Assembly (NCBI GenBank): GCA_002869065.1
Contig: PKTR01000002.1
Span: 434,001-498,000, forward strand
DNA: 64,000 bases
Direction: 5' to 3'
DNA from: Hyphomicrobiales bacterium
Lineage (GTDB): Bacteria; Pseudomonadota; Alphaproteobacteria; Rhizobiales; Rhodobiaceae
The translations under genes and the position numbers were made by a program. Below, one piece after another: positions 35,911 to 64,000 of the stretch; positions within the stretch are counted from its first letter, which is position 1, and the number at the start of each line of letters is the position of its first letter. The notes beneath the pieces are model-generated. The model had not been told where the DNA came from, did no database searches, and was given only the letters and a program-made list of their open reading frames with translations.

Positions 35911-36018
35911 GCCGCGCTTCCCTCACGCTTTTTGGGAACGGGGAAGCTTGCAAGGAGGACAGCGCCGCGGCGCCGTTCCGAGCCGCCTGCGGAACACCCC
36001 GTCCGCTGTCTCGTCACG

Positions 36019-36232
36019 GTGCTGGCAGGTCTCCCGGCTTGCGGATATCGATGACCTCGATGCGTCGATGGCGTTGAGGTATCGGCGGCCCACCCACCTT
36101 CCCGGCATGTCGGCCAGTGGCTTTGGGGGGTCTTTCCGGTCACGGTCGCGGGGGCGGCTGCGCTTCACGTCCATTTCACCAATGGACCCTGTCGCATTCC
36201 CTCTTCGCCTGTCATAAAGACAGGAACCAGCG
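36019..36232 (-). ncRNA. cobalamin riboswitch upstream of the long cob operon
   Basis: Read on the minus strand, the region contains the B12-box core GCAGCCGCCCCCGCGACCG (36144-36163 region), then AAAGCCACTGG, CATGCCGGGAAGG and, near the 3' end, AAGCCGGGAGACCTGCC (36024-36040). These occur in the order and spacing of the cobalamin (AdoCbl) aptamer. The 3' end lies about 110 bases from the DUF1636 start; the stretch between is GC-rich with further inverted repeats (TTCCG...CGGAA, CGCCGCGGCGC), able to form the expression platform. Predicted to repress the operon when cobalamin is plentiful. Confidence 0.93.
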
Positions 36233-36281
36233 TCGCCTCACCTGCTCTGAAAACGGCGCTGATGTCAAGGAAGGAAAGCCG

Positions 36282-44108: not shown

Positions 44109-44267
44109 ATGTCGTCTCTCCAACGGACCGACGAACGCCGGCGAAATGGAAAGGACAACAGGGACAGTTGGCGCCAAGTCGGGTGTGAGAATATCGGAAA
44201 ATCCTGACCCGCCTCACCGCCAGACGTTCACCCCGACGTCCGGTTCGGCTTGAGCGCACGACGGCGC

Positions 44268-44440
44268 CCGGTGCGACGGCAGGTCTCCTGGCTCGCGGGT
44301 CTCGGCTCTTGCCCGCCTTCCCGGCCGTACGGCCAGTGGCGACATTGCGGCAATCGCTATCCGCTTACAGTTGCGGGGGCAGCCACGGATTCGGTCCCTG
44401 TTGGGTACGCCTAACCGTGTTCCCTTTTAATCCCCGATGT
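44268..44440 (-). ncRNA. cobalamin riboswitch upstream of the ECF transporter operon
   Basis: On the minus strand: AATCCGTGGCTGCCCCCGCAACTGTAAGCGG (44361-44392 region), then GCCACTGGCC, GGCCGGGAAGGCGGG and, near the end, GCGAGCCAGGAGACCTGCC (44278-44296). Every conserved block of the cobalamin aptamer is present, with a textbook B12 box. It ends about 160 bases before the DUF4198 gene. Its place predicts that the metal transporter imports cobalt and is shut off by cobalamin. Confidence 0.96.
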
Positions 44441-44703
44441 TCAACATACGGGGAACCAATCACGCGCCTAACAGACGCGCGGGCGGTGCGAATGTCAAGC
44501 GGGCCGGTGTCGCGCAGGCGCCAGATATCCAGGGCGCCGAGCCACGTCGATACCACGATCTGCGACCTGAGCACTTGAACGGCGCGGACGCGGAGCCTAA
44601 GACGATCACCGGACCAGGGAGAACCTGTTCGATGGGCGCCGGGCGAGTGTCGCAGGCGCTGCTTCGGGCGGGGAGGCATCGGAGAAAGCGGGAGTTCGCC
44701 GAC
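44441..44703. other. region between riboswitch 2 and the next plus-strand gene
   Basis: 263 bp. It should contain the promoter of the leftward ECF operon, just right of 44440, and the promoter of the small plus-strand gene at 44704. A frame upstream of 44704 is open but Arg-rich and not convincing. Confidence 0.4.
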
Positions 44704-51229: not shown

Positions 51230-52024
51230 CTAGACGACCGAATGCGCCGCATCATTGAAGAACAGGGCCTGACTGATCAGCGCTTTGACCATATCCGGGT
51301 TGAACGGCTTGGTGACGAGGAAAGCAGGCTCCGGCCGCTCGCCCGTCAGCAGGCGCTCGGGAAAGGCGGTGATGAAGATGACCGGAATGGTATCGGTCTT
51401 GAGGATGTCGTTGACCGCATCGATGCCGGAACTTCCATCGGCGAGCTGAATGTCGGCGAGGATCATTTTCGGCGTTGTACGCTGGAACAGATCGACGGCC
51501 TCGGTGTGCGTGCGGGCGATACCCGTGACCCGGTGCCCGAGGCTTTCCACCATCTGCTCGATATCCATCGCGATCAGCGGCTCATCCTCGATGATCATGA
51601 TGTCGGTCGCGACCTGACGCGATATCTCCTCGCTTGCGGTCGCCAGCAAGGCGGGGAACTCGTCTTCGTCGATGCCGAGGATCTCGGCCGCCTCGGCGGT
51701 GGAGAAATTCTCCACCGAGACCAGCAGGAAGGCCTGCCGGCCGAGAGGCGGGATCATTTTCAGATTTGCCGCCGCGCGTTTTTCCCATGCAAATGGAGAC
51801 TCGTGATCCTCGATCTCGAGCCGCGTGGAACCAAACAGCCTCGCGAACAGTTTAAAAAGGGCGACGCGATCGCTTGAGGCTTCGGGAAAGGCCGAGACAT
51901 CGGCGATCAAGGCCTCGAGAGTGGCCGCGACATAGGCGTCTCCCGACGTCTGCGAGCCGGCGACGGCGCGCGCATAGCGACGCAGATAAACAAGGTGAGG
52001 TGCGACGCGCGTGGAAAGCGACAT
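51230..52024 (-). CDS. phyR: general stress response anti-anti-sigma regulator PhyR
   Basis: 264 residues. An N-terminal sigma-factor-like domain (residues 1-135; sigma2-like LVYLRRYARAVAG, sigma4-like IPPLGRQAFLLVSVENFSTAEAAEILG) is joined to a receiver domain (142-260) with acidic pocket EDE, phospho-acceptor Asp191 (LADIQL), FITAFPERLLTGE and VTKPF. The 'FITA' region is the FATGUY form of PhyR receivers. When phosphorylated it binds NepR and frees EcfG. It is divergent from nepR-ecfG with a facing EcfG promoter. Confidence 0.97.
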   Translation of the reverse strand: MSLSTRVAPHLVYLRRYARAVAGSQTSGDAYVAATLEALIADVSAFPEASSDRVALFKLFARLFGSTRLEIEDHESPFAWEKRAAANLKMIPPLGRQAFLLVSVENFSTAEAAEILGIDEDEFPALLATASEEISRQVATDIMIIEDEPLIAMDIEQMVESLGHRVTGIARTHTEAVDLFQRTTPKMILADIQLADGSSGIDAVNDILKTDTIPVIFITAFPERLLTGERPEPAFLVTKPFNPDMVKALISQALFFNDAAHSVV

Positions 52025-52066
52025 TTAAGAGTCTCCCTGACTTTTCCGCATACGGGCTGGAGGGTA

Positions 52067-52091
52067 AACGCCGGCCGGTGAAAAAAGTTCC
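52067..52091 (-). promoter_or_regulatory. EcfG-type promoter of phyR
   Basis: Minus strand GGAAC (52091-52087), 16 bp, CGTT (52070-52067), 42 bp before the phyR ATG at 52024. Its GGAAC box is only 9 bp from the GGAAC box of the opposing nepR promoter. Confidence 0.82.
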
Positions 52092-52100
52092 GGGAAGGTT

Positions 52101-52125
52101 GGAACGTTTTTTTGCTTCGCGCGTT
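52101..52125 (+). promoter_or_regulatory. EcfG-type promoter of nepR-ecfG
   Basis: GGAAC (52101-52105), 16 bp, CGTT (52122-52125), 37 bp before the nepR ATG at 52163. Implies positive autoregulation of the sigma factor. Confidence 0.82.
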
Positions 52126-52162
52126 TCACGACAAATGGACGAATGACAGGCACCCTGGAACA

Positions 52163-52363
52163 ATGACTGGCATTGACAAAAAAACGGGCGCGGCCCCGGC
52201 AGGAAACAGCGGCGAAGCGGGCTTTGACGATCCCAATTCGCAGATCTCCATGAGGCTTCGCGAACTCTACAGTTCGGTCGAGGCAGAGGGGATTCCCGAC
52301 CGTTTCCTCGATCTCCTCGAAAAACTCGACGAAGCTGAGAAGGCCTCCGGTCATGAGCAGTGA
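52163..52363 (+). CDS. nepR: anti-sigma factor NepR
   Basis: 66 residues. The conserved core ISMRLRELYSSVEAEGIPDRFLDLLEKLDEAE holds the two helices that grip EcfG (or PhyR) in this family, after a disordered Gly/Ala-rich N-terminus. It sequesters EcfG until PhyR-P takes it away. ATG 52163 has only a weak CTGGAAC before it. Its last 11 bases overlap ecfG, so the two are co-translated. Confidence 0.95.
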   Translation: MTGIDKKTGAAPAGNSGEAGFDDPNSQISMRLRELYSSVEAEGIPDRFLDLLEKLDEAEKASGHEQ

Positions 52364-52919
52364 GCCGAAGACGGAGCAGCCGAGCTTCAAGCGGGAGATG
52401 CTCGCCTGCCTGCCGAACCTGCGCGCTTTCGCGGTATCCCTCGTCGGCAGTCCGGACCGTGCGGACGACCTCGTGCAGGACACGATCATGAAGGCGTGGG
52501 CAAAGCAGCACAGCTTCGAGCTCGGCACCAACATGAAGGCCTGGCTGTTCACGATCCTGCGCAACGATTTCTACAGCCAGATGCGCAAACGGGGTCGCGA
52601 GGTTCAGGACAGCGACGGCACGTTCACGGCGCAACTCGCCGTGCACCCGGGCCAGCACGGGTCGCTCGACCTGCAGGACTTCAAGGCGGCGCTGGAAAAG
52701 CTGCCGGACGACCAGCGTGAAGCGATCCTGCTGGTTGGCGCCTCCGGCTTTGCCTATGAAGAGGCCGCCGAAATCTGCGGCTGCGCGGTCGGAACCATCA
52801 AGAGCCGCGTCAATCGCGCCCGCAATCGCTTGCAGGAACTGCTCGAGGTCTCCGGCCAGGCCGACTACGGCCCGGATGCGGACATGGCGGCCGCGACCCA
52901 CGGTGGACCGGTCTTCTGA
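52353..52919 (+). CDS. ecfG: general stress response ECF sigma factor EcfG (RpoE2 type)
   Basis: 188 residues. Sigma2 region: LACLPNLRAFAVSLVGSPDRADDLVQDTIMKAWAKQHSF, with the DDLVQDT core; N-M-K-AWLFTILRNDFYSQMRK region; sigma4: LEKLPDDQREAILLVGASGFAYEEAAEICGCAVGTIKSRVNRAR, the helix-turn-helix that reads GGAAC. This is EcfG/RpoE2. It overlaps nepR and is followed tail-to-tail by a receiver gene. Its predicted target sites appear nine times in exact form within this window. Confidence 0.97.
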   Translation: MSSEPKTEQPSFKREMLACLPNLRAFAVSLVGSPDRADDLVQDTIMKAWAKQHSFELGTNMKAWLFTILRNDFYSQMRKRGREVQDSDGTFTAQLAVHPGQHGSLDLQDFKAALEKLPDDQREAILLVGASGFAYEEAAEICGCAVGTIKSRVNRARNRLQELLEVSGQADYGPDADMAAATHGGPVF

Positions 52920-57050: not shown

Positions 57051-57992
57051 TTAGCGAACGAGAACGGCGTCGCGATTCGACTTGTAGGCTTCTTCCGAGT
57101 AGGCGGTATAGGTCTCGAGCTGCGCCTGGGTGTACGGCGTGTAGATGCTCATGTCGCCGTCGACGTCCTTGAAGATATCGAGCTGCGACGCATCAAGCGC
57201 GATCGGCTTTTCGCCGATGCCGAGGAAGCCGCCAACGTCGACGATATAGGCCTCGACGTCGCCCGTGGTCGACACGATCACGTCACCGATCTCACCGATA
57301 TCCTTGTCGTTCTGACCGTAGACACGGGTGCCGATCAGGTTTTCCGCGCTCAGCGTGTCGCGATTGACGATCTTCATGCCGTCGCGAACATCGGTCACCT
57401 TGTCGTCGGTAGCCGTCACGCGCTCGTCGGTCTTGGTGACGTCGGTGCCGGACTTCTCCATCGTCTCTTCCGTCGCGGCCATGTCCGTCTTGGTCATCAT
57501 CGGCTCGCTAGTGGAGACCTTCTTCATGACCGTCGCGCGATCGAATTCCGGCGCCGATTCCAGGTCTTCCTTGGTTGCATTGATGGAGAGGATCATCTCG
57601 TCCTCATGGCGGACCCAGTTGACGCGTTCGAACGCCACCGCCACGTCCTTCTCGCCAATGCCGAGGAAGCCCCCGACGCCGACGACGATCGCGTCAGCCA
57701 TGCCGTTTTCCGACATCACGATGTCGTTGACATCGCCGATCTCGCTCATGTCGGCGCCCTTGCCGCTGTAGACGGTCTTGCCGAGCAACGAGGAGGCGAG
57801 GATCTGGCTGTCCGCAGTCCTGACGTAGCCGTTCATATGGTAGGACGGCGCCTTCCAGTTCGGGTCGATGGTGAAGACGGTGACGGTGTGGACCGTCGTT
57901 TCGGTGCCTTCGGCCGTCTTGTCCTCGGCGACGGCGGCGCCGGTCAAGATCATGGTGGCGATGGCGGTCGTGGTGAGCAGCTTGCGGATCAT
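57051..57992 (-). CDS. exported protein with two PRC-barrel domains
   Basis: 313 residues with a signal peptide (MIRKLLTTTAIATMILTGAAVA|E). Two PRC-barrel repeats: about 65-135 (ILASSLLGKTVYSG...EIGDVNDIVMSENG...VGGFLGIGEKDVAVAF) and about 215-285 (LSAENLIGTRVYGQNDKDIGEIGDVIVSTTG...VGGFLGIGEKPIALD). Each contains the same VGGFLGIGEK block, so the pair arose by duplication; a Thr/Glu/Lys-rich linker joins them. Family role: small-molecule or protein binding; common in Rhizobiales under stress control. An EcfG-type promoter lies 99-123 bp upstream. Confidence 0.9.
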   Translation of the reverse strand: MIRKLLTTTAIATMILTGAAVAEDKTAEGTETTVHTVTVFTIDPNWKAPSYHMNGYVRTADSQILASSLLGKTVYSGKGADMSEIGDVNDIVMSENGMADAIVVGVGGFLGIGEKDVAVAFERVNWVRHEDEMILSINATKEDLESAPEFDRATVMKKVSTSEPMMTKTDMAATEETMEKSGTDVTKTDERVTATDDKVTDVRDGMKIVNRDTLSAENLIGTRVYGQNDKDIGEIGDVIVSTTGDVEAYIVDVGGFLGIGEKPIALDASQLDIFKDVDGDMSIYTPYTQAQLETYTAYSEEAYKSNRDAVLVR

Positions 57993-58115: not shown

Positions 58116-58482
58116 CGATCGATTGACGCGCGCCGGCAAACTCGCGGCTGCAGGGAATGGACTTTTGGAGGGTTTCCGGCACTTCAACTGACGATCGCAA
58201 CGACACGCCAAGGTCGCACCAGGAGGCTAAGCCCGACATGGCGCGCGCGGTTTTGCAGCTTTTTCAGTTCTGATCAGACGAAAGAACGGCCACCGGCGGC
58301 AGTGTGCCGCGCCAGCCGTAACGTGGCAGTGTACAGCGCCGGCCGGAACTCTGTGCCCGGCGCATCACGACAATCTGCCGGGCGCTCGCTTAGTCGACGG
58401 ACAAAAGCGCCCGCCAAGCTTTGCCCGCGTGATCGCGTTGGCGCCAAGCGCTCAGGCAACGGATCTGATTGTGGGGAGAAAA

Positions 58483-58528
58483 TGGTGCCCAGGGGCGGAA
58501 TCGAACCACCGACACGCGGATTTTCAAT
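58483..58528 (-). pseudogene. 3' half of a tRNA-Phe gene (likely attachment-site remnant)
   Basis: On the minus strand the 46 bases begin at the anticodon loop (ATTGAAAATCCGC; GAA anticodon) and run through the variable loop, T arm (GTGGTTCGATTCCGC) and acceptor strand to the encoded CCA (CCTGGGCACCA), then TTTTCTCCCC. Upstream of the anticodon the sequence no longer fits a tRNA: there is no D arm or 5' acceptor. Integrative elements often recombine in the anticodon loop of a tRNA gene and leave such a 3' copy at the far end. The element would lie to the right (higher coordinates). Confidence 0.75.
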
Positions 58529-58841
58529 TCTCGGCAAGGAAATTCCCACATCACCCCGTAAGCACCTTCAGGCCTTCAAAGTGCTGGATTTGCTGAGATA
58601 GAGTTCACATCCGTGCGCCCGCGGCATCCCCCCAGCGCCCAAGAAGACGGTACCACCAAGGTACAACGCTTGGCGTGATCGGTTACTCGAACCGCCAGCG
58701 GCGCAGTTCGCTCGCATACCATTTCCAAAGGAACTGTGTTGCTGGAAGCGGTGCAGGTCGGCTTTCAAAGCACGCTCGAACTTCAACCCCCGAAAGAAGA
58801 CATCACCGAGCATCCTCGCTGTCGGACGCGACCTGATTTTC

Positions 58842-60263
58842 TCATCGAACCTGCCACACGTGAATGACGGGCTTGTTGCTGTCGGCGTGTGGCTCCAACA
58901 CATAGAGATGGTCGCCGACGCGATCGTAGGCGATGGCACCGATGCGCTGCAGCCGCTGGTCGCCTAAGCCGAGTTCGGGCAGATCGCCGGCATTCAGCAG
59001 CAGATTGTCGTCGACCACCAGACGCGCATAGGGCTGCGGCTCGAAGGGCTCAAGCGCGCCGGTCGCGACCTTCGCGAGATCGTTCGGATCGTACAGGATG
59101 AACTGCGCCTCGAAACGATTGGACCACCAGCCGCGCACGCCGTTATGCGCTTTGCATTCCTGATAGTCTTCGCGGGGACAGGGCTGACCGCTGGCCATAC
59201 TGCAAGACCATTCTTCGCCGGACGATCCGGCAAAGACGCACGGGAACTGCGGGCCCTCAAGATTGGCGAAGCCATACCAGAAACGCTCGCCGACACCCTT
59301 TGTCCCGGCGAAAAGCACGGCGGCCTTGCCGGTTGTGGTGGTCAGCCAGGCGCCGCCCTCCCAGGAATCCGGATGCTGATAGCCTTCGAGAATCCGCGCC
59401 GGATCGAACCCCTCTTCCGAGCTTTGGTAATTGAGTAGGGTCGTCGACGCCAATTCCGTTCCCGGCCCCGGGAACACTCCCTCGTCGTCCCACGACCGAT
59501 AGGCGATCAGGCTTGGGCCCATACCCGACCAGCCGCCGTCGCGAAAACGGCCGGTCGCTAGAACGCGACCTTCGGCGAAGCGATCCGCCCAGTCTCTCGG
59601 AATTTCGAACAAATAGTCGTTGACGCTGAAAGTCGAATGGCCGGCGAGCCGCCACGGACCCTGGAAGTTCGGCCGCTCCAGATCCGGGTCGAAGACGCCA
59701 TGGGTGCCTTCGGCGATGTCCGTACCCATGTGCTGGCCGAAGGCGATGTGAACCTTTGGGCCGGTCGCCGGCGTATCGAGATATTCGAGGCCAACGCGCG
59801 GCAATTCACTGTTGCGGGCAAAGCTGGTGCCGGTGACGTTCTGCAGTTGCTGCAGGATCGTCGCTGTTGGCAAATCGTTAAGCTTGCGCGACGCACCGGG
59901 TGCCGGAATGGCAATTTCGGCGATCTGCCTGCCACTCGGCAACTGATAGGGATGCCCGGTAATGAAAAGCGACCCGGGGAAGCCGTCATCGGGACCCTTC
60001 GGGTCGCCCCCGCAGCGATAGGTCAGAGCGTGGGCACCCCAGGCAAAGCTGTTGTCCTCGTCCTCGTCGAGGGGCAGCCGGAAGGCACCGAGATAATGGA
60101 AATCATCGACCGAAACCGTTCGCGCCCCGATCTCCGGCTCCGTCGGCCGCGCGCGATCCTGTGCCAACGCACGCGCCGGTGACGTGGCGACGATTGTTGT
60201 CGCCAGAAGCAGCGCTCCGACGGTTAGAACTTCAGAAGCTGGAATCGCTGAACGCCTCGCCAT
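58842..60263 (-). CDS. secreted protein of unknown function
   Basis: 473 residues. A signal peptide or anchor spans about residues 10-35 (VLTVGALLLATTIVATSPARALA|Q). The body is rich in Gly, Trp and aromatic turns with spaced strands (FHYLGAFRLPLD, GSLFITGHPYQLPSGRQIAEIAIP, LFEIPRDWADRFAEGRVLATGRFRDGGWSGMGPSLIAYRSW, LAKVATGALEPFEPQPYARLVVDDNL, IGAIAYDRVGDHLYVLEPHAD...IHVWQVR), suggesting a beta-propeller. Cys occur at YRCGGD, FPCVF, WSCSM, QPCPRED and QECKA. I do not recognise a named family. The last of three adjacent leftward genes for exported proteins, right of the tRNA-Phe remnant. Confidence 0.65.
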   Translation of the reverse strand: MARRSAIPASEVLTVGALLLATTIVATSPARALAQDRARPTEPEIGARTVSVDDFHYLGAFRLPLDEDEDNSFAWGAHALTYRCGGDPKGPDDGFPGSLFITGHPYQLPSGRQIAEIAIPAPGASRKLNDLPTATILQQLQNVTGTSFARNSELPRVGLEYLDTPATGPKVHIAFGQHMGTDIAEGTHGVFDPDLERPNFQGPWRLAGHSTFSVNDYLFEIPRDWADRFAEGRVLATGRFRDGGWSGMGPSLIAYRSWDDEGVFPGPGTELASTTLLNYQSSEEGFDPARILEGYQHPDSWEGGAWLTTTTGKAAVLFAGTKGVGERFWYGFANLEGPQFPCVFAGSSGEEWSCSMASGQPCPREDYQECKAHNGVRGWWSNRFEAQFILYDPNDLAKVATGALEPFEPQPYARLVVDDNLLLNAGDLPELGLGDQRLQRIGAIAYDRVGDHLYVLEPHADSNKPVIHVWQVR

Positions 60264-60311
60264 GACGCTATCTCCTCGAGCACGACCGATCGGAAGGACG
60301 GCACCTGCCGG

Positions 60312-60722
60312 TCAACCGCACGGTCTCGCGGTGACACGGCAGTAAATCTCACCCGGTCGCTTCGGACGGCATTCGATGCGTTTGTTGCGGGCCTTGCTCC
60401 AATGGGAATAGCGCTCGCCATACTGGCTCCGCACCTTCTCCTCCCAGTCGCGGATGGCGAAGGTGCGGGCATTGGTCTCATTGTTCATGGTGGCGGCCTC
60501 GGTGACGTCCGACTTGCAGACGAACGCCCTGAACGGCTGCTGCGGCTGCCAGGGCCTGACCCGCGGGTCAGTAACCGGAATGATGCCGCCATCGTCCGAC
60601 TGAAACTGGACCGGACCGACTTGCCAAGAAGAGAGCGAGCCAGCGAATGTTTCATTTCCCGGGAAACTGGCGAGCGCGAGTGCAAGCAATCCGCCAAAAC
60701 CAAGTTTGGCCATCGTTTTCAT
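60312..60722 (-). CDS. small secreted protein of unknown function
   Basis: 136 residues from ATG 60722 (GGAGGTCTGCG before it). Signal peptide (MKTMAKLGFGGLLALALASFPGNETFA|G). The mature part contains FVCKSDVTEAATMNNETNARTFAIRDWEEKVRSQYGERYSHWSKARNKRIECRP and ends YCRVTARPCG; four Cys could pair. The Trp/Arg-rich 'FAIRDWEEKVRSQYGxxYxxWxxAxxKxxxC' pattern recurs in small rhizobial exported proteins, but no function is known to me. It lies 65 bp after the large gene and 48 bp before the next. Confidence 0.7.
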   Translation of the reverse strand: MKTMAKLGFGGLLALALASFPGNETFAGSLSSWQVGPVQFQSDDGGIIPVTDPRVRPWQPQQPFRAFVCKSDVTEAATMNNETNARTFAIRDWEEKVRSQYGERYSHWSKARNKRIECRPKRPGEIYCRVTARPCG

Positions 60723-60787
60723 CGCAGACCTCCGGTTTTTCCTGGCTGGCGCTTCTGAGGCTTGGAGGTTGCCAGACGAATGCATGA

Positions 60788-63700
60788 CTACTTGATGCAT
60801 TTCCGGGCAACCCTGTTCCACTTCAGTCCCTTCGGACAGCCACAGAAGAAGGCGTTCCGCTGTTTCGGAACCGGCTTGGCGATACGGCCGCCGTCGCAGA
60901 CGCAACGGTTGCCGACCACCTTGCCGAAGCGACAGGAGATTTCGACAATGCACTGCCGTTTCACCTTGTCCCAAACCTGGCCATCACGGCAGCCGCAGAA
61001 GAAAGCGTTGCGTTTGCCACGGATCGGTTTGGCAATACGGCCGCCGTCGCAGACGCAGCGGTTGCCGACCACCTTGCCGAAGCGACAGGAGATCTCGGCA
61101 ACGCATTGGCGTTTCGCCTTGTCCCAACGCTGGCCGTCGCGGCAGCCACAGAAGAACGCATCACGTTTGCCGGGCACCGGCTTGGCGATACGACCGCCGT
61201 CGCAGACGCAGCGGTTGCCGGCCACCTTGCCGAAGCGGCATGTGATCGTGGCAACGCATTGGCGTTTGCGCGGATCCCATCTCTGGGTGCCCGGGCAACT
61301 GCAGAAGTAGGCGGACTGCCGGTCGGGATCCCGTCGGGCGACCCGCCCGCCGGTGCACAGGCACTGTCCATTTCGCACCGTCCCGCCAACACAGGTGATC
61401 TGCTGGCTGGGTTCGGCGACACACTCGCCCGTTCGTTCATCGACGACGGTACCCGGCGGGCATTCCTCCTGCGACTGGGCCGGCTCGGCAACGCATTCGC
61501 CGGTCTGTTCGTCGATCACCGTCCCGGCAGGACATTCCTCATCGGAAGCGACCGGTTCGGCAACGCATGCGCCGGTCTGCTCGTCGACGACGGTCCCCGC
61601 AGGGCATTCCTCTTCCGGCTCGGCTGACCCGGCGACGCATTCGCCAGTCTGTTCATCGACCACGGTTCCGGCCGGGCATTCCTCTTCCACTTCAGCCGGC
61701 GCGGCGACGCAGTCGCCGGTGTTCTCGTCAATGATGGTCCCCGCAGGGCAATCCTCGACGGCCTGATCAGGTTGGGCCGCTTCCTCGGCGGCATCGTCGA
61801 TGTTTTCCGACACCGCCTCGAATTGCGGTGGCGATCCGCCGCGACGGATACGCGTGCTGATCGTCACGATCCTCGGATCGCCGGTCGGGACGATCTCGAT
61901 GATCCGTTCACTGCCGTCGAAAAGCGCCAGCGTGAACCTGACCTTGCGCTGATCATGGACACCTTCGCGGTCGCGGGCGACGAAGAGAAAGTTCTCCGGC
62001 CAGCTTGTCGTCCATTCGAACAGACGGCCTTCGCCGCTGAACGCGATAGCCGGATGGCCGGGCGGTATTCTGAGTGAGTTTTGGTCCGCATCCCAGGACT
62101 GGAATTCCTCCCACTCCTTCGTTGTGGCGTTGCGCCCGTAGCGGGTGATCCGCGCCTGCGTGACCCGCCGTCCATAGCCCAGACGGGCATCCAACGCGAT
62201 GTTGTCGCAGGCGGTGTTTTCCGGCTCGACGACGAATGTCCGGTTTTCGAAGAACTGCCGATCCGGATCCAGTTCATAGACGCGGTGCCTTGGATCGGCG
62301 CTGCGTTCGCACCGGATCTGGATGCCGTAGGTGTTCGGCGGCGCAATCTCGATGTAACGCGTCGTGGCATCGTCGAAATCGAGCTTGATGCGGGAGCGGA
62401 AGCGCCGGGTCTCGACCAGATCATAGCTGGCACCCAGGTCCCCTGTGCGCCAGTGAGCGACGCTTTGCCGACCGGAATACCCGTTGACCGGCGCCCGCGC
62501 ATCGATTGTACCGGCAGATCTCAGGGTTGCGGGATCGTTCCGCCAATACCCGGTCACCGGATCGTAAGCGAAGTTTTGAAGCTCCGCGCCGGTGACGGTT
62601 GCGGACCCTCCATCCGCATAGAAGACGTTGATTGCGTCGCACGCGGTCGGGCGCGGCTCGGTGATGAACAGGTCTTCAACGCTGGTGTGGAGCGTACGGA
62701 CGGCCCTGCCCCCGACAAGGCATTCGACCCGGACGCCGAAGAACGGCTTTTCGCAACTCGGCGCGATGGTCGTCGGCATCGGGCACAGACGGCGCACATT
62801 TGCGGGATCGATGGCACCTTCAGGACCGACAGCGGCGTCGATCCGCTGATCGAGTTGCCGCGCCCATCCGCCGGGCTCGCAGCCACCGTTCAGATGCTGG
62901 TTCCAGACAATCAGGGCGCGCACATTGCCGAGAAAAGCAGTCTGGCGCCGGCTCAGTTCCGTGAGTTCGGCCGCAGTGGTCGGCGGCGACGGCCCGTCGC
63001 AGGCCGATGTGCCGTTCGACAGGCCCCAGTCGGTCCAGGTCTCGATCTCATCGAGATCTTCGTAAACCCAGAATTTCGGCCTCGGCCCGGAGATCGTCGG
63101 CAATTGTTCCTGAGGATCTCCGGTCTTTCCGGAGCACTGCATCTTGAAGTTGGAGTTGCGGGTCAGGTGCGTGTTCGAGACGATGATCGCTCGCGGAAGG
63201 TCGTCGTTTCCGACGTCGGCATAACCAATGATCGGCATGAAGTGCTGGCCGCCGCGGGACACCATAATCAACGGGATATTGTTGTCGATGAAGCCCTTTA
63301 TGATCATGCGGGCGACGGTGACGTCGTTCTCCGTCTCGACCGAGAACGGCCGTGCGTCGTTACAGCCAACAACAGTGCGCCGGTTCATGTAACCGTACAT
63401 GCCGAGCCGGGCAGTCCAGATGCAAGTGTTGCCGACGCCCGCAACGTTTCCGCAGCCGCCCCTGGAGGCATTGAGCCAGGTTTCGAACTGGTTCGAAGGC
63501 GGCGAGCATTGGCCGTAGCGCGGAATGGGCGTGTTCGCGACGCCATCCTGGAAGTATCCGTCGCAGGTCGCCGTAGCGGTCGACTGGTTGAACAGGTTGC
63601 CGAAGAACACGCCGTCAGCGGCGCTCTGATCGACGGCGCCCTCCCGGCTGCGGTAGGCCTCGTACTCCGCGGCCAAATGTTCAGACGAGCCGAAATAGCC

Positions 63701-64000
63701 GACATCTGTCACGGCACCGCGAAGTTGGTCGGTCATATATCGCAGCGTGGCGTCATAGTGGACGTTCTGCTCGTAGCGGCTGAAATTGAGCTGCTCGGCG
63801 ACCATACCCATCGAGAAGAACATGCACTGCGCGCTGTGCTGACGGTGCCGGCTCTCAAGGATATTCTGGCCGTTGCGCGGCTGAACGATCCAGTGCGGCA
63901 CGCGCTGCAGATAGCCGGCGTCAAGATCGGCGAAGCTGTTGAAGCGTAGCGAGTCCGCCGCTGCGGGTCCCGTCGAAATCAGCAGGCTCGCGAGCACAAT
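60788..64000 (-). CDS. large secreted protein: possible papain/C39-like domain plus two sets of Cys-rich tandem repeats (5' end outside window)
   Basis: At least 1069 residues; the frame is still open at the window edge, where a hydrophobic run (LASLLISTGPAAA|D) looks like the end of a signal peptide. Numbering from the GTG at 63997: Cys58 (SAQCMFF), His252 (SRGGQHFMPIIGYAD) and Asn275 (IIVSNTH) have the order and setting of a papain/C39-like triad. A long middle part with beta-rich, Cys-containing sequence follows. Then come five 24-residue repeats (CPAGTVVDEQTGECVA core) and four 51-residue repeats with eight Cys each (core GNRCVCDGGRIAKP, FFCGCRDGQRWD). Function unknown; the repeats suggest a disulfide-rich extracellular stalk or binding region. 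Confidence 0.7.
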   Translation of the reverse strand: MVLASLLISTGPAAADSLRFNSFADLDAGYLQRVPHWIVQPRNGQNILESRHRQHSAQCMFFSMGMVAEQLNFSRYEQNVHYDATLRYMTDQLRGAVTDVGYFGSSEHLAAEYEAYRSREGAVDQSAADGVFFGNLFNQSTATATCDGYFQDGVANTPIPRYGQCSPPSNQFETWLNASRGGCGNVAGVGNTCIWTARLGMYGYMNRRTVVGCNDARPFSVETENDVTVARMIIKGFIDNNIPLIMVSRGGQHFMPIIGYADVGNDDLPRAIIVSNTHLTRNSNFKMQCSGKTGDPQEQLPTISGPRPKFWVYEDLDEIETWTDWGLSNGTSACDGPSPPTTAAELTELSRRQTAFLGNVRALIVWNQHLNGGCEPGGWARQLDQRIDAAVGPEGAIDPANVRRLCPMPTTIAPSCEKPFFGVRVECLVGGRAVRTLHTSVEDLFITEPRPTACDAINVFYADGGSATVTGAELQNFAYDPVTGYWRNDPATLRSAGTIDARAPVNGYSGRQSVAHWRTGDLGASYDLVETRRFRSRIKLDFDDATTRYIEIAPPNTYGIQIRCERSADPRHRVYELDPDRQFFENRTFVVEPENTACDNIALDARLGYGRRVTQARITRYGRNATTKEWEEFQSWDADQNSLRIPPGHPAIAFSGEGRLFEWTTSWPENFLFVARDREGVHDQRKVRFTLALFDGSERIIEIVPTGDPRIVTISTRIRRGGSPPQFEAVSENIDDAAEEAAQPDQAVEDCPAGTIIDENTGDCVAAPAEVEEECPAGTVVDEQTGECVAGSAEPEEECPAGTVVDEQTGACVAEPVASDEECPAGTVIDEQTGECVAEPAQSQEECPPGTVVDERTGECVAEPSQQITCVGGTVRNGQCLCTGGRVARRDPDRQSAYFCSCPGTQRWDPRKRQCVATITCRFGKVAGNRCVCDGGRIAKPVPGKRDAFFCGCRDGQRWDKAKRQCVAEISCRFGKVVGNRCVCDGGRIAKPIRGKRNAFFCGCRDGQVWDKVKRQCIVEISCRFGKVVGNRCVCDGGRIAKPVPKQRNAFFCGCPKGLKWNRVARKCIK
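60791..61393. repeat. four tandem 153-bp units coding for Cys-rich modules
   Basis: Units at 60791-60934 (short last one), 60935-61087, 61088-61240 and 61241-61393 encode 51-residue modules with the Cys pattern C-x9/10-CxC-x17-CxC-x12/14-C. The three C-terminal units are close in DNA as well as protein; the fourth (N-terminal) is diverged. Confidence 0.9.
61394..61753. repeat. five tandem 72-bp units coding for a CPAGTVVDEQTGECV module
   Basis: The codon for the first Cys recurs at exactly 72-bp steps (61460, 61532, 61604, 61676, 61748). The 15-16 residue core is highly conserved and the eight-residue acidic linker varies. Confidence 0.92.

What the first reader, a model, noticed from the sequence alone, without database searches (positions are those of the whole stretch)
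58483..58528. tRNA-Phe 3' half as an island boundary
A 46-nt stretch matches a tRNA-Phe from the anticodon loop to CCA, with no 5' half. Its orientation means any integrated element extends rightward, which would put the secreted-protein block on the element and the stress cluster on the host side.
Basis: partly seen in the sequence, partly recalled or inferred. Interest (0 to 1): 0.6.

Follow-up and report, generated by a model that had tools for sequence, protein, structure and literature searches.

The report
Mobile island ending in tRNA-Phe fragment
The 46-letter piece of a phenylalanine tRNA gene marks one end of a 16-kilobase mobile DNA island, which inserted at that tRNA and carries a DNA-restriction system and some secreted proteins; islands bounded like this are a well-known kind.

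Summary
Window 58483-58528 is nt 31-76 of tRNA-Phe(GAA), minus strand. An identical copy lies 15,867 bp to the right, inside the intact tRNA-Phe. The exact direct repeat is 50 bp (58479-58528). Between the copies lie an intact tyrosine integrase, an AlpA-like gene, a second intact tyrosine recombinase, a complete type I HsdRMS system and the secreted-protein block.

Two independent checks support the boundary. A distant alphaproteobacterium carries a 66%-identical integrase in a 19,587-bp element with the same fragment-left, tRNA-right layout. A paired motif, GGTACCAN5GTAC, occurs exactly twice in the 4.04-Mb genome, 121 and 85 bp inside the two att copies, and at 120 and 87 bp in the other element.

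It is a textbook tRNA-bounded genomic island, a new member of a known kind. The PhyR/NepR/sigma-factor stress cluster is on the host side.

Possibly new: the second recombinase and its HTH/Cys4 partner sit side by side in 30 of 33 fetched loci; wherever a tRNA is in reach (17 of 30 genome loci) its 3' end faces the recombinase. No pre-insertion site was observed.

The parts
58479..58528 (-). Displaced 3' fragment of tRNA-Phe(GAA) plus 4 nt: left copy of the 50-bp att direct repeat, the left boundary of the island
58529..64000 (.). The 5,472 bp of the island that lie in the window; it continues 10.4 kb further right to the intact tRNA-Phe at C2:508350-508425 (element 15,867 bp)
58529..58567 (+). 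Inner left end of the element; similarity to the G170 element runs on through it (85-bp blastn match including the att, 84.7%)
58649..58664 (+). GGTACCAN5GTAC motif, 121 bp inside the left att; likely arm-type binding site; its only other genome copy is 85 bp inside the right att
58842..60263 (-). Cargo: 473-aa protein with a signal-peptide-like N-terminus (by eye), no known family, found only in this genome among 397 of the order
60312..60722 (-). Cargo: small protein (136 aa from its likely ATG) with a signal-peptide-like N-terminus (by eye)
60788..64000 (-). Cargo: large secreted-type protein with Cys-rich repeats (1158-aa ORF, C2:494788-498264, cut by the window end)
57051..57992 (-). PRC-barrel gene, the last host-side gene before the boundary
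51230..52919 (.). Host-side general stress response genes PhyR (-), NepR (+), ECF sigma factor (+)

Best explanation
Window 58479-58528 is the displaced 3' half of the host's tRNA-Phe gene, left behind when a 15.9-kb integrative island inserted into it. Shown: 50-bp direct repeats; the intact tRNA-Phe at the right end; between them an intact tyrosine integrase (Int1), a small AlpA-like HTH protein, an HTH/Cys4 protein, a second intact tyrosine recombinase (Int2), complete HsdRMS genes and three secreted-type proteins; paired GGTACCAN5GTAC motifs at matching distances inside both ends. Inferred: Int1 bound the paired motifs as arm sites and exchanged strands in the anticodon loop, so that the island supplied a new tRNA 3' half at its right end and the old half was pushed to its left end. 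Inferred: the AlpA-like protein acts as the excision factor, the restriction system pays for maintenance by blocking phage, and transfer depends on a helper because no conjugation, capsid or replication gene was recognised.
For: Exact repeat and its unique second copy. Intact tRNA-Phe at the far end, in the orientation required for a displaced 3' fragment. Integrase with R, HxxRH, H and Y residues present. A 66%-identical integrase in a distant genome lies in an element with the same boundaries and layout. The paired motif occurs only twice in the genome, just inside both ends, at distances (121, 85) matched in the other element (120, 87). In an ungapped comparison with the other element, 33 of 60 bp are identical just inside the left att, against 17 of 60 just outside it (20,000 random pairs: mean 15.3, maximum 30). 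Island GC is 60.3% against 64.5% (left) and 62.9% (right), and its tetranucleotide profile lies further from the left flank (0.210-0.236) than any of 13 left-flank pieces (0.088-0.189). The two large cargo proteins were found only in G000 among 397 genomes of the order. The same-genus genome G002 has a displaced tRNA-Phe 3' fragment beside an arm-type integrase.
Against: No empty site was seen: the two same-genus genomes are too diverged and their tRNA-Phe neighbourhoods do not align with this one. The integrase lies in the middle of the element, not beside the tRNA. Just inside the right att the two elements are no more alike than background (18 of 60), apart from the motif. G170 has three further copies of the motif outside the element. 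Only one other element with this integrase was found, among 385 class and 397 order genomes searched. Pfam names no arm-binding domain at the N-terminus of Int1. Excision, transfer and restriction activity are untested.
Confidence: 0.96

Rival explanations
1. The fragment is a remnant of a local duplication or homologous exchange involving tRNA-Phe, and the intervening genes are ordinary host genes.
For: A tRNA fragment alone can arise this way (inference); no call supports it.
Against: The repeat runs from the anticodon loop to just past CCA; an intact integrase lies between; the paired motif sits inside both ends only; an independent element shares the layout; the two large cargo proteins were found only here among 397 genomes.
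Confidence: 0.02
2. Two elements are fused: an Int1 island with secreted cargo, and a second island built on HTH/Cys4-Int2-Hsd, with an inner boundary that has been lost.
For: The HTH/Cys4-Int2 pair travels with other integrases elsewhere; the island has two recombinases.
Against: Only two att copies exist and no inner tRNA fragment was found. G170 has both modules in the same order within one att pair although its cargo differs.
Confidence: 0.12
3. The island is a decayed prophage or a conjugative element (ICE).
For: Arm-type integrases and AlpA-like regulators are shared by phages, satellites and ICEs; ICEs of Mesorhizobium use phe-tRNA (recalled; title in the reference list seen).
Against: No structural, terminase, relaxase or type IV secretion gene was recognised in the 15.9 kb; Int2 has no match in 50,697 phage records.
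Confidence: 0.1

Closest known systems
tRNA-gene genomic islands as defined by Islander (PMC4383910; abstract and passages seen)
   Same: Intact tRNA at one end, displaced 3' fragment at the other, same orientation, integrase inside, 2-200 kb, anticodon-loop crossover type.
   Different: Nothing in the boundary logic; only the gene content is new.
Element of G170 = MAG JANQPV010000063.1 (Alphaproteobacteria bacterium IP29b_bin.177)
   Same: Same tRNA-Phe att, fragment left and tRNA right, Int1 66%, Int2 60%, AlpA-like and HTH/Cys4 proteins, motif distances.
   Different: Cargo differs: type III-like restriction-modification genes, SNF2-type helicase, DUF4268/DUF6998, and only an HsdR N-terminal remnant.
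tRNA-Phe / tRNA-Leu defence islands of E. coli (PMC12458937; passages seen)
   Same: Defence cargo delivered into tRNA-Phe by an integrase, AlpA-like gene.
   Different: Those have 16-20 nt repeats and HUH replication genes; here a 50-bp repeat, no such gene recognised, and two tyrosine recombinases.
tmRNA islands I23/I44/I55 with intY and alpA (PMC12595487; abstract and passages seen)
   Same: Non-autonomous island, tyrosine integrase, AlpA, defence genes.
   Different: Target is tmRNA with a 14-bp repeat; gene content differs; transfer by a jumbo phage shown there, unknown here.
Mesorhizobium symbiosis ICE ICEMlSymR7A (PMC11963761; abstract and passages seen)
   Same: Integrase with arm sites (consensus TGKTGGTATC), attP of 283 bp. 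The phe-tRNA target is recalled and from a cited title.
   Different: About 500 kb (recalled and from a cited title) and conjugative; here 15.9 kb without transfer genes.

Membership tests
tRNA-bounded genomic island (Islander definition) | Intact tRNA gene and a displaced fragment of it on the same replicon | tested here: met
tRNA-bounded genomic island (Islander definition) | Fragment in the same orientation, and a 3' fragment downstream of the tRNA | tested here: met
   both on the minus strand, fragment 15.9 kb downstream
tRNA-bounded genomic island (Islander definition) | Integrase gene between them, 2-200 kb | tested here: met
tRNA-bounded genomic island (Islander definition) | Empty site in a close relative (supporting, not part of Islander's filters) | tested here: inconclusive
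   only two same-genus genomes, no shared synteny at tRNA-Phe
tRNA-bounded genomic island (Islander definition) | Excision to a circle with attP | not testable with these tools
   needs reads or PCR
Type I restriction-modification system, EcoAI family | Complete hsdR, hsdM, hsdS with domains intact | tested here: met
   (NF046051, 1167 bits against cut-off 550); activity untested
Integrative conjugative element | Relaxase and type IV secretion genes | tested here: not met
   none recognised among the island's proteins
Prophage or phage satellite | Structural, packaging or capsid-remodelling genes | tested here: not met
   only integration, DNA-binding and unknown-function families matched among the 8 island proteins scanned against PHROGs

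The most novel reading that the evidence does not exclude
The HTH/Cys4 protein and the arm-less tyrosine recombinase Int2 form a conserved second recombination module of tRNA-targeted, often restriction-carrying islands in Alpha-, Beta- and Gammaproteobacteria and Acidobacteria. It is separate from the integrating enzyme, which varies between islands. It may exchange or add cargo next to itself, or resolve multimers of the excised circle.
Probability: 0.45. Interest if true: 0.55.

Novelty: new member of a known kind. Interest (0 to 1): 0.33.

Why it matters
It fixes to the base where host ends and mobile DNA begins, so the secreted proteins and the restriction system can be treated as acquired cargo and the stress genes as host. 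The parallel element in a distant genome gives a pair of islands with the same ends and different cargo, a clean natural comparison. The recurring second recombinase is an active-looking enzyme without an assigned job in a widespread type of defence-carrying island.

Tried and rejected
Rfam did not recognise the 3' half as tRNA at E up to 10, so the identification rests on exact identity with the intact gene. Two-row searches of viral contigs with Int1 and Int2 found no relatives, nor did Int1 alone in genome contigs. Structure predictions of the 473-aa protein and of a 336-residue stretch of the large protein, each without an alignment, were useless (mean pLDDT 32.7 and 30.5), so no fold is claimed. 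Solved-structure searches for both cargo proteins gave only chance-level rows.

A k-mer comparison of 27 downstream and 28 upstream regions found no convincing shared site for Int2: downstream counts were at the level of shuffles, and upstream at most 3-5 loci shared a k-mer for k = 10-13, one locus above the shuffled maximum. Comparison of the flanks with the two same-genus genomes and two others of the order (G042, G045) gave no shared neighbourhood (one isolated 32.8% match to G045). The idea of an inner att copy (tandem islands) was tested and not supported.

In one search the G170 query for the small HTH protein was taken in a wrong frame; I do not use its hits. L064 is the same contig as G170, so the 30 loci include it. 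In one search, 6 of 33 loci with broken or truncated Int2 frames were left out (L081, L085, L087, L088, L089, L093). Of the four plasmid records, three were opened.

Full report
Observation. The minus strand of 58483-58528 is nt 31-76 of a tRNA-Phe(GAA), with nothing of the 5' half beside it. The genome (4,036,153 bp, 7 contigs; the window is C2:434001-498000) holds the 46 nt exactly twice, on the same strand: here and at C2:508350-508395. The second copy is the 3' part of an intact tRNA-Phe, C2:508350-508425, minus strand. Extending the match gives a 50-bp exact repeat and an element of 15,867 bp.

Content of the element. From left to right (C2 coordinates): 473-aa secreted-type protein 492842-494263 (-); small 136-aa protein 494312-494722 (-); large protein 494788-498264 (-, 1158-aa ORF, the true start may be later); Int1, tyrosine integrase of 390 aa, 498655-499827 (-); a protein of 193 aa from a likely ATG, 499837-500418 (-), with a ribbon-helix-helix look by eye and no Pfam match; a 72-aa HTH_17 protein (excisionase/regulator type by PHROGs phrog_66, 500588-500806, +); a 153-aa protein with HTH_17 and four conserved cysteines (500837-501298, +); Int2, tyrosine recombinase of 364 aa, 501341-502435 (+); HsdS 502510-504240, HsdM 504237-505685, HsdR 505689-508166 (all -); then tRNA-Phe. 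HsdR scores 1167 bits against a 550 cut-off for the EcoAI/FtnUII family. No conjugation, packaging or replication gene was recognised. The signal peptides are my reading of the sequence, not a tool result.

Independent test 1: a parallel element. Int1 was sought in 81 relatives (E<=1e-30: G000 and one 29% match), 385 genomes of the class (E<=1e-45: G000 and G170) and 397 of the order with a two-row profile (E<=1e-60: G000 only). In G170 (a different family of the class; the same contig as MAG JANQPV010000063.1 by length and positions) the 66%-identical Int1 lies between two tRNA-Phe copies on one strand: a 46-nt fragment at C64:15867-15912 and an intact tRNA-Phe at C64:35454, giving a 19,587-bp element. 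Int2 (60%), the HTH/Cys4 protein (50%), the small HTH protein (62% over 55 aa) and the 193-aa protein (38%) are present in the same order. The cargo differs: type III-like restriction and methyltransferase genes, an SNF2-type helicase, DUF4268 and DUF6998 proteins, and an HsdR N-terminal remnant.

Independent test 2: the ends. Comparing the two elements, 33 of 60 bp just inside the left att are identical (ungapped). The values are 17 of 60 just outside left, 18 of 60 just inside right and 17 of 60 beyond the tRNA; 20,000 random pairs gave mean 15.3 and maximum 30. Both inner ends of both elements hold GGTACCAN5GTAC (two GTAC 11 bp apart), at 121 and 85 bp from the att copies here and 120 and 87 bp in G170. 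In this whole genome the motif occurs twice, only there. G170 has it at both ends plus three other places. G001, G002, G042 and G045 have none. I read these as arm-type sites of Int1. Their role is inferred; PMC8138268 and PMC11963761 (passages seen) describe arm sites in general. Excision would give an attP of roughly 270 bp, against about 250 bp in PMC4383910 (passages) and 283 bp for ICEMlSymR7A (passages).

Other support. Island GC is 60.3% against 64.5% and 62.9% in the flanks, and its tetranucleotide distance from the left flank (0.210-0.236 in three pieces) exceeds all 13 left-flank pieces (0.088-0.189). The 1158-aa and 473-aa proteins were found only in this genome among 397 of the order and not in 72,556 plasmid records. 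The same-genus genome G002 has an intact tRNA-Phe on one contig and a 3' fragment with the same 46 nt on another, followed at once by an arm-type integrase and, further on, Cmr-type CRISPR genes. Whether the latter lie inside that element cannot be told from separate contigs.

Against. No empty site was found. G001 and G002 have tRNA-Phe next to other genes (Maf and IF-1 by eye), and none of 290 ORFs from the window and right flank matches there at E<=1e-8, except Int1 against the G002 integrase at 28%. The integrase is central rather than beside the tRNA. Only one further Int1 element is known. Pfam names core-binding and catalytic domains in Int1 but no arm-binding domain, so that its N-terminal ~95 aa bind arms is inferred. 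Activity is untested.

Host and island sides. By geometry a 3' fragment is displaced downstream of the tRNA, so the island lies right of 58528 and the PRC-barrel gene, CsbD and the PhyR-NepR-sigma factor cluster are host DNA. The secreted block is on the island.

The second recombinase. A two-row Int2 profile in genome contigs gave 30 loci in Alpha-, Beta- and Gammaproteobacteria and Acidobacteria, with one more record labelled Cytophagales among them. With three plasmid loci this makes 33. The HTH/Cys4 protein lies directly upstream in 30 of 33 (not detected in L077, L089, L093), with the four cysteines conserved in 30-31 of 31 rows. Int2's R, K, H and R are conserved in 28 of 28 rows and its second H and Y in 27 of 28, six broken frames left out. 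Of the 30 genome loci, 17 hold a tRNA and 17 of 17 nearest tRNAs have their 3' end towards Int2. In L080, L082 and L088 a copy of the tRNA 3' part (45, 38 and 17 nt) lies on the other side of Int2. Integrases near these tRNAs are often of another, Arm-DNA-bind_3 type (L080, L085, L092). By tblastn, Hsd-like genes lie near Int2 in 6 of the 29 loci other than L064 (L072, L076, L077, L080, L086, L092), several weakly, and restriction genes are annotated beside two of three plasmid loci. No shared DNA site for Int2 was found. I did not find this pair described in ten paper searches, which cover only openly licensed full texts and only the words I used.

Verdict. The finding is real and correctly interpreted, and the thing is a new member of a well-known kind. 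The recurring two-recombinase backbone is the part worth a specialist's look.

Noticed in passing
L064-L093, L097-L099: An HTH/Cys4 protein and an arm-less tyrosine recombinase (Int2) sit side by side in 30 of 33 loci, sometimes with AlpA-like and restriction genes, and the nearest tRNA, where one is in reach, always faces them.
   Followed up: partly
L055 (G002 contig C171): A same-genus genome has its own displaced tRNA-Phe fragment followed by an arm-type integrase and, within 3-7 kb, Cmr-type CRISPR genes.
   Followed up: partly
L062 9513-10700 (G170 C64:14513-15700): Another Arm-DNA-bind_3 integrase lies just outside the left att of the G170 element, possibly a neighbouring island.
   Followed up: no
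window 44261-44476 and 36007-36246, minus strand: Two cobalamin riboswitches, both far above the family cut-off.
   Followed up: no
L053 and L054: In both same-genus genomes tRNA-Phe lies near a Maf gene (and IF-1 in G002; by eye), whereas here it lies beside NnrS and a Crp-type regulator; the tRNA neighbourhood has been rearranged within the genus.
   Followed up: no
L063 10776-11228: G170's element keeps only an N-terminal remnant of HsdR next to the tRNA, where this genome has complete HsdRMS.
   Followed up: partly
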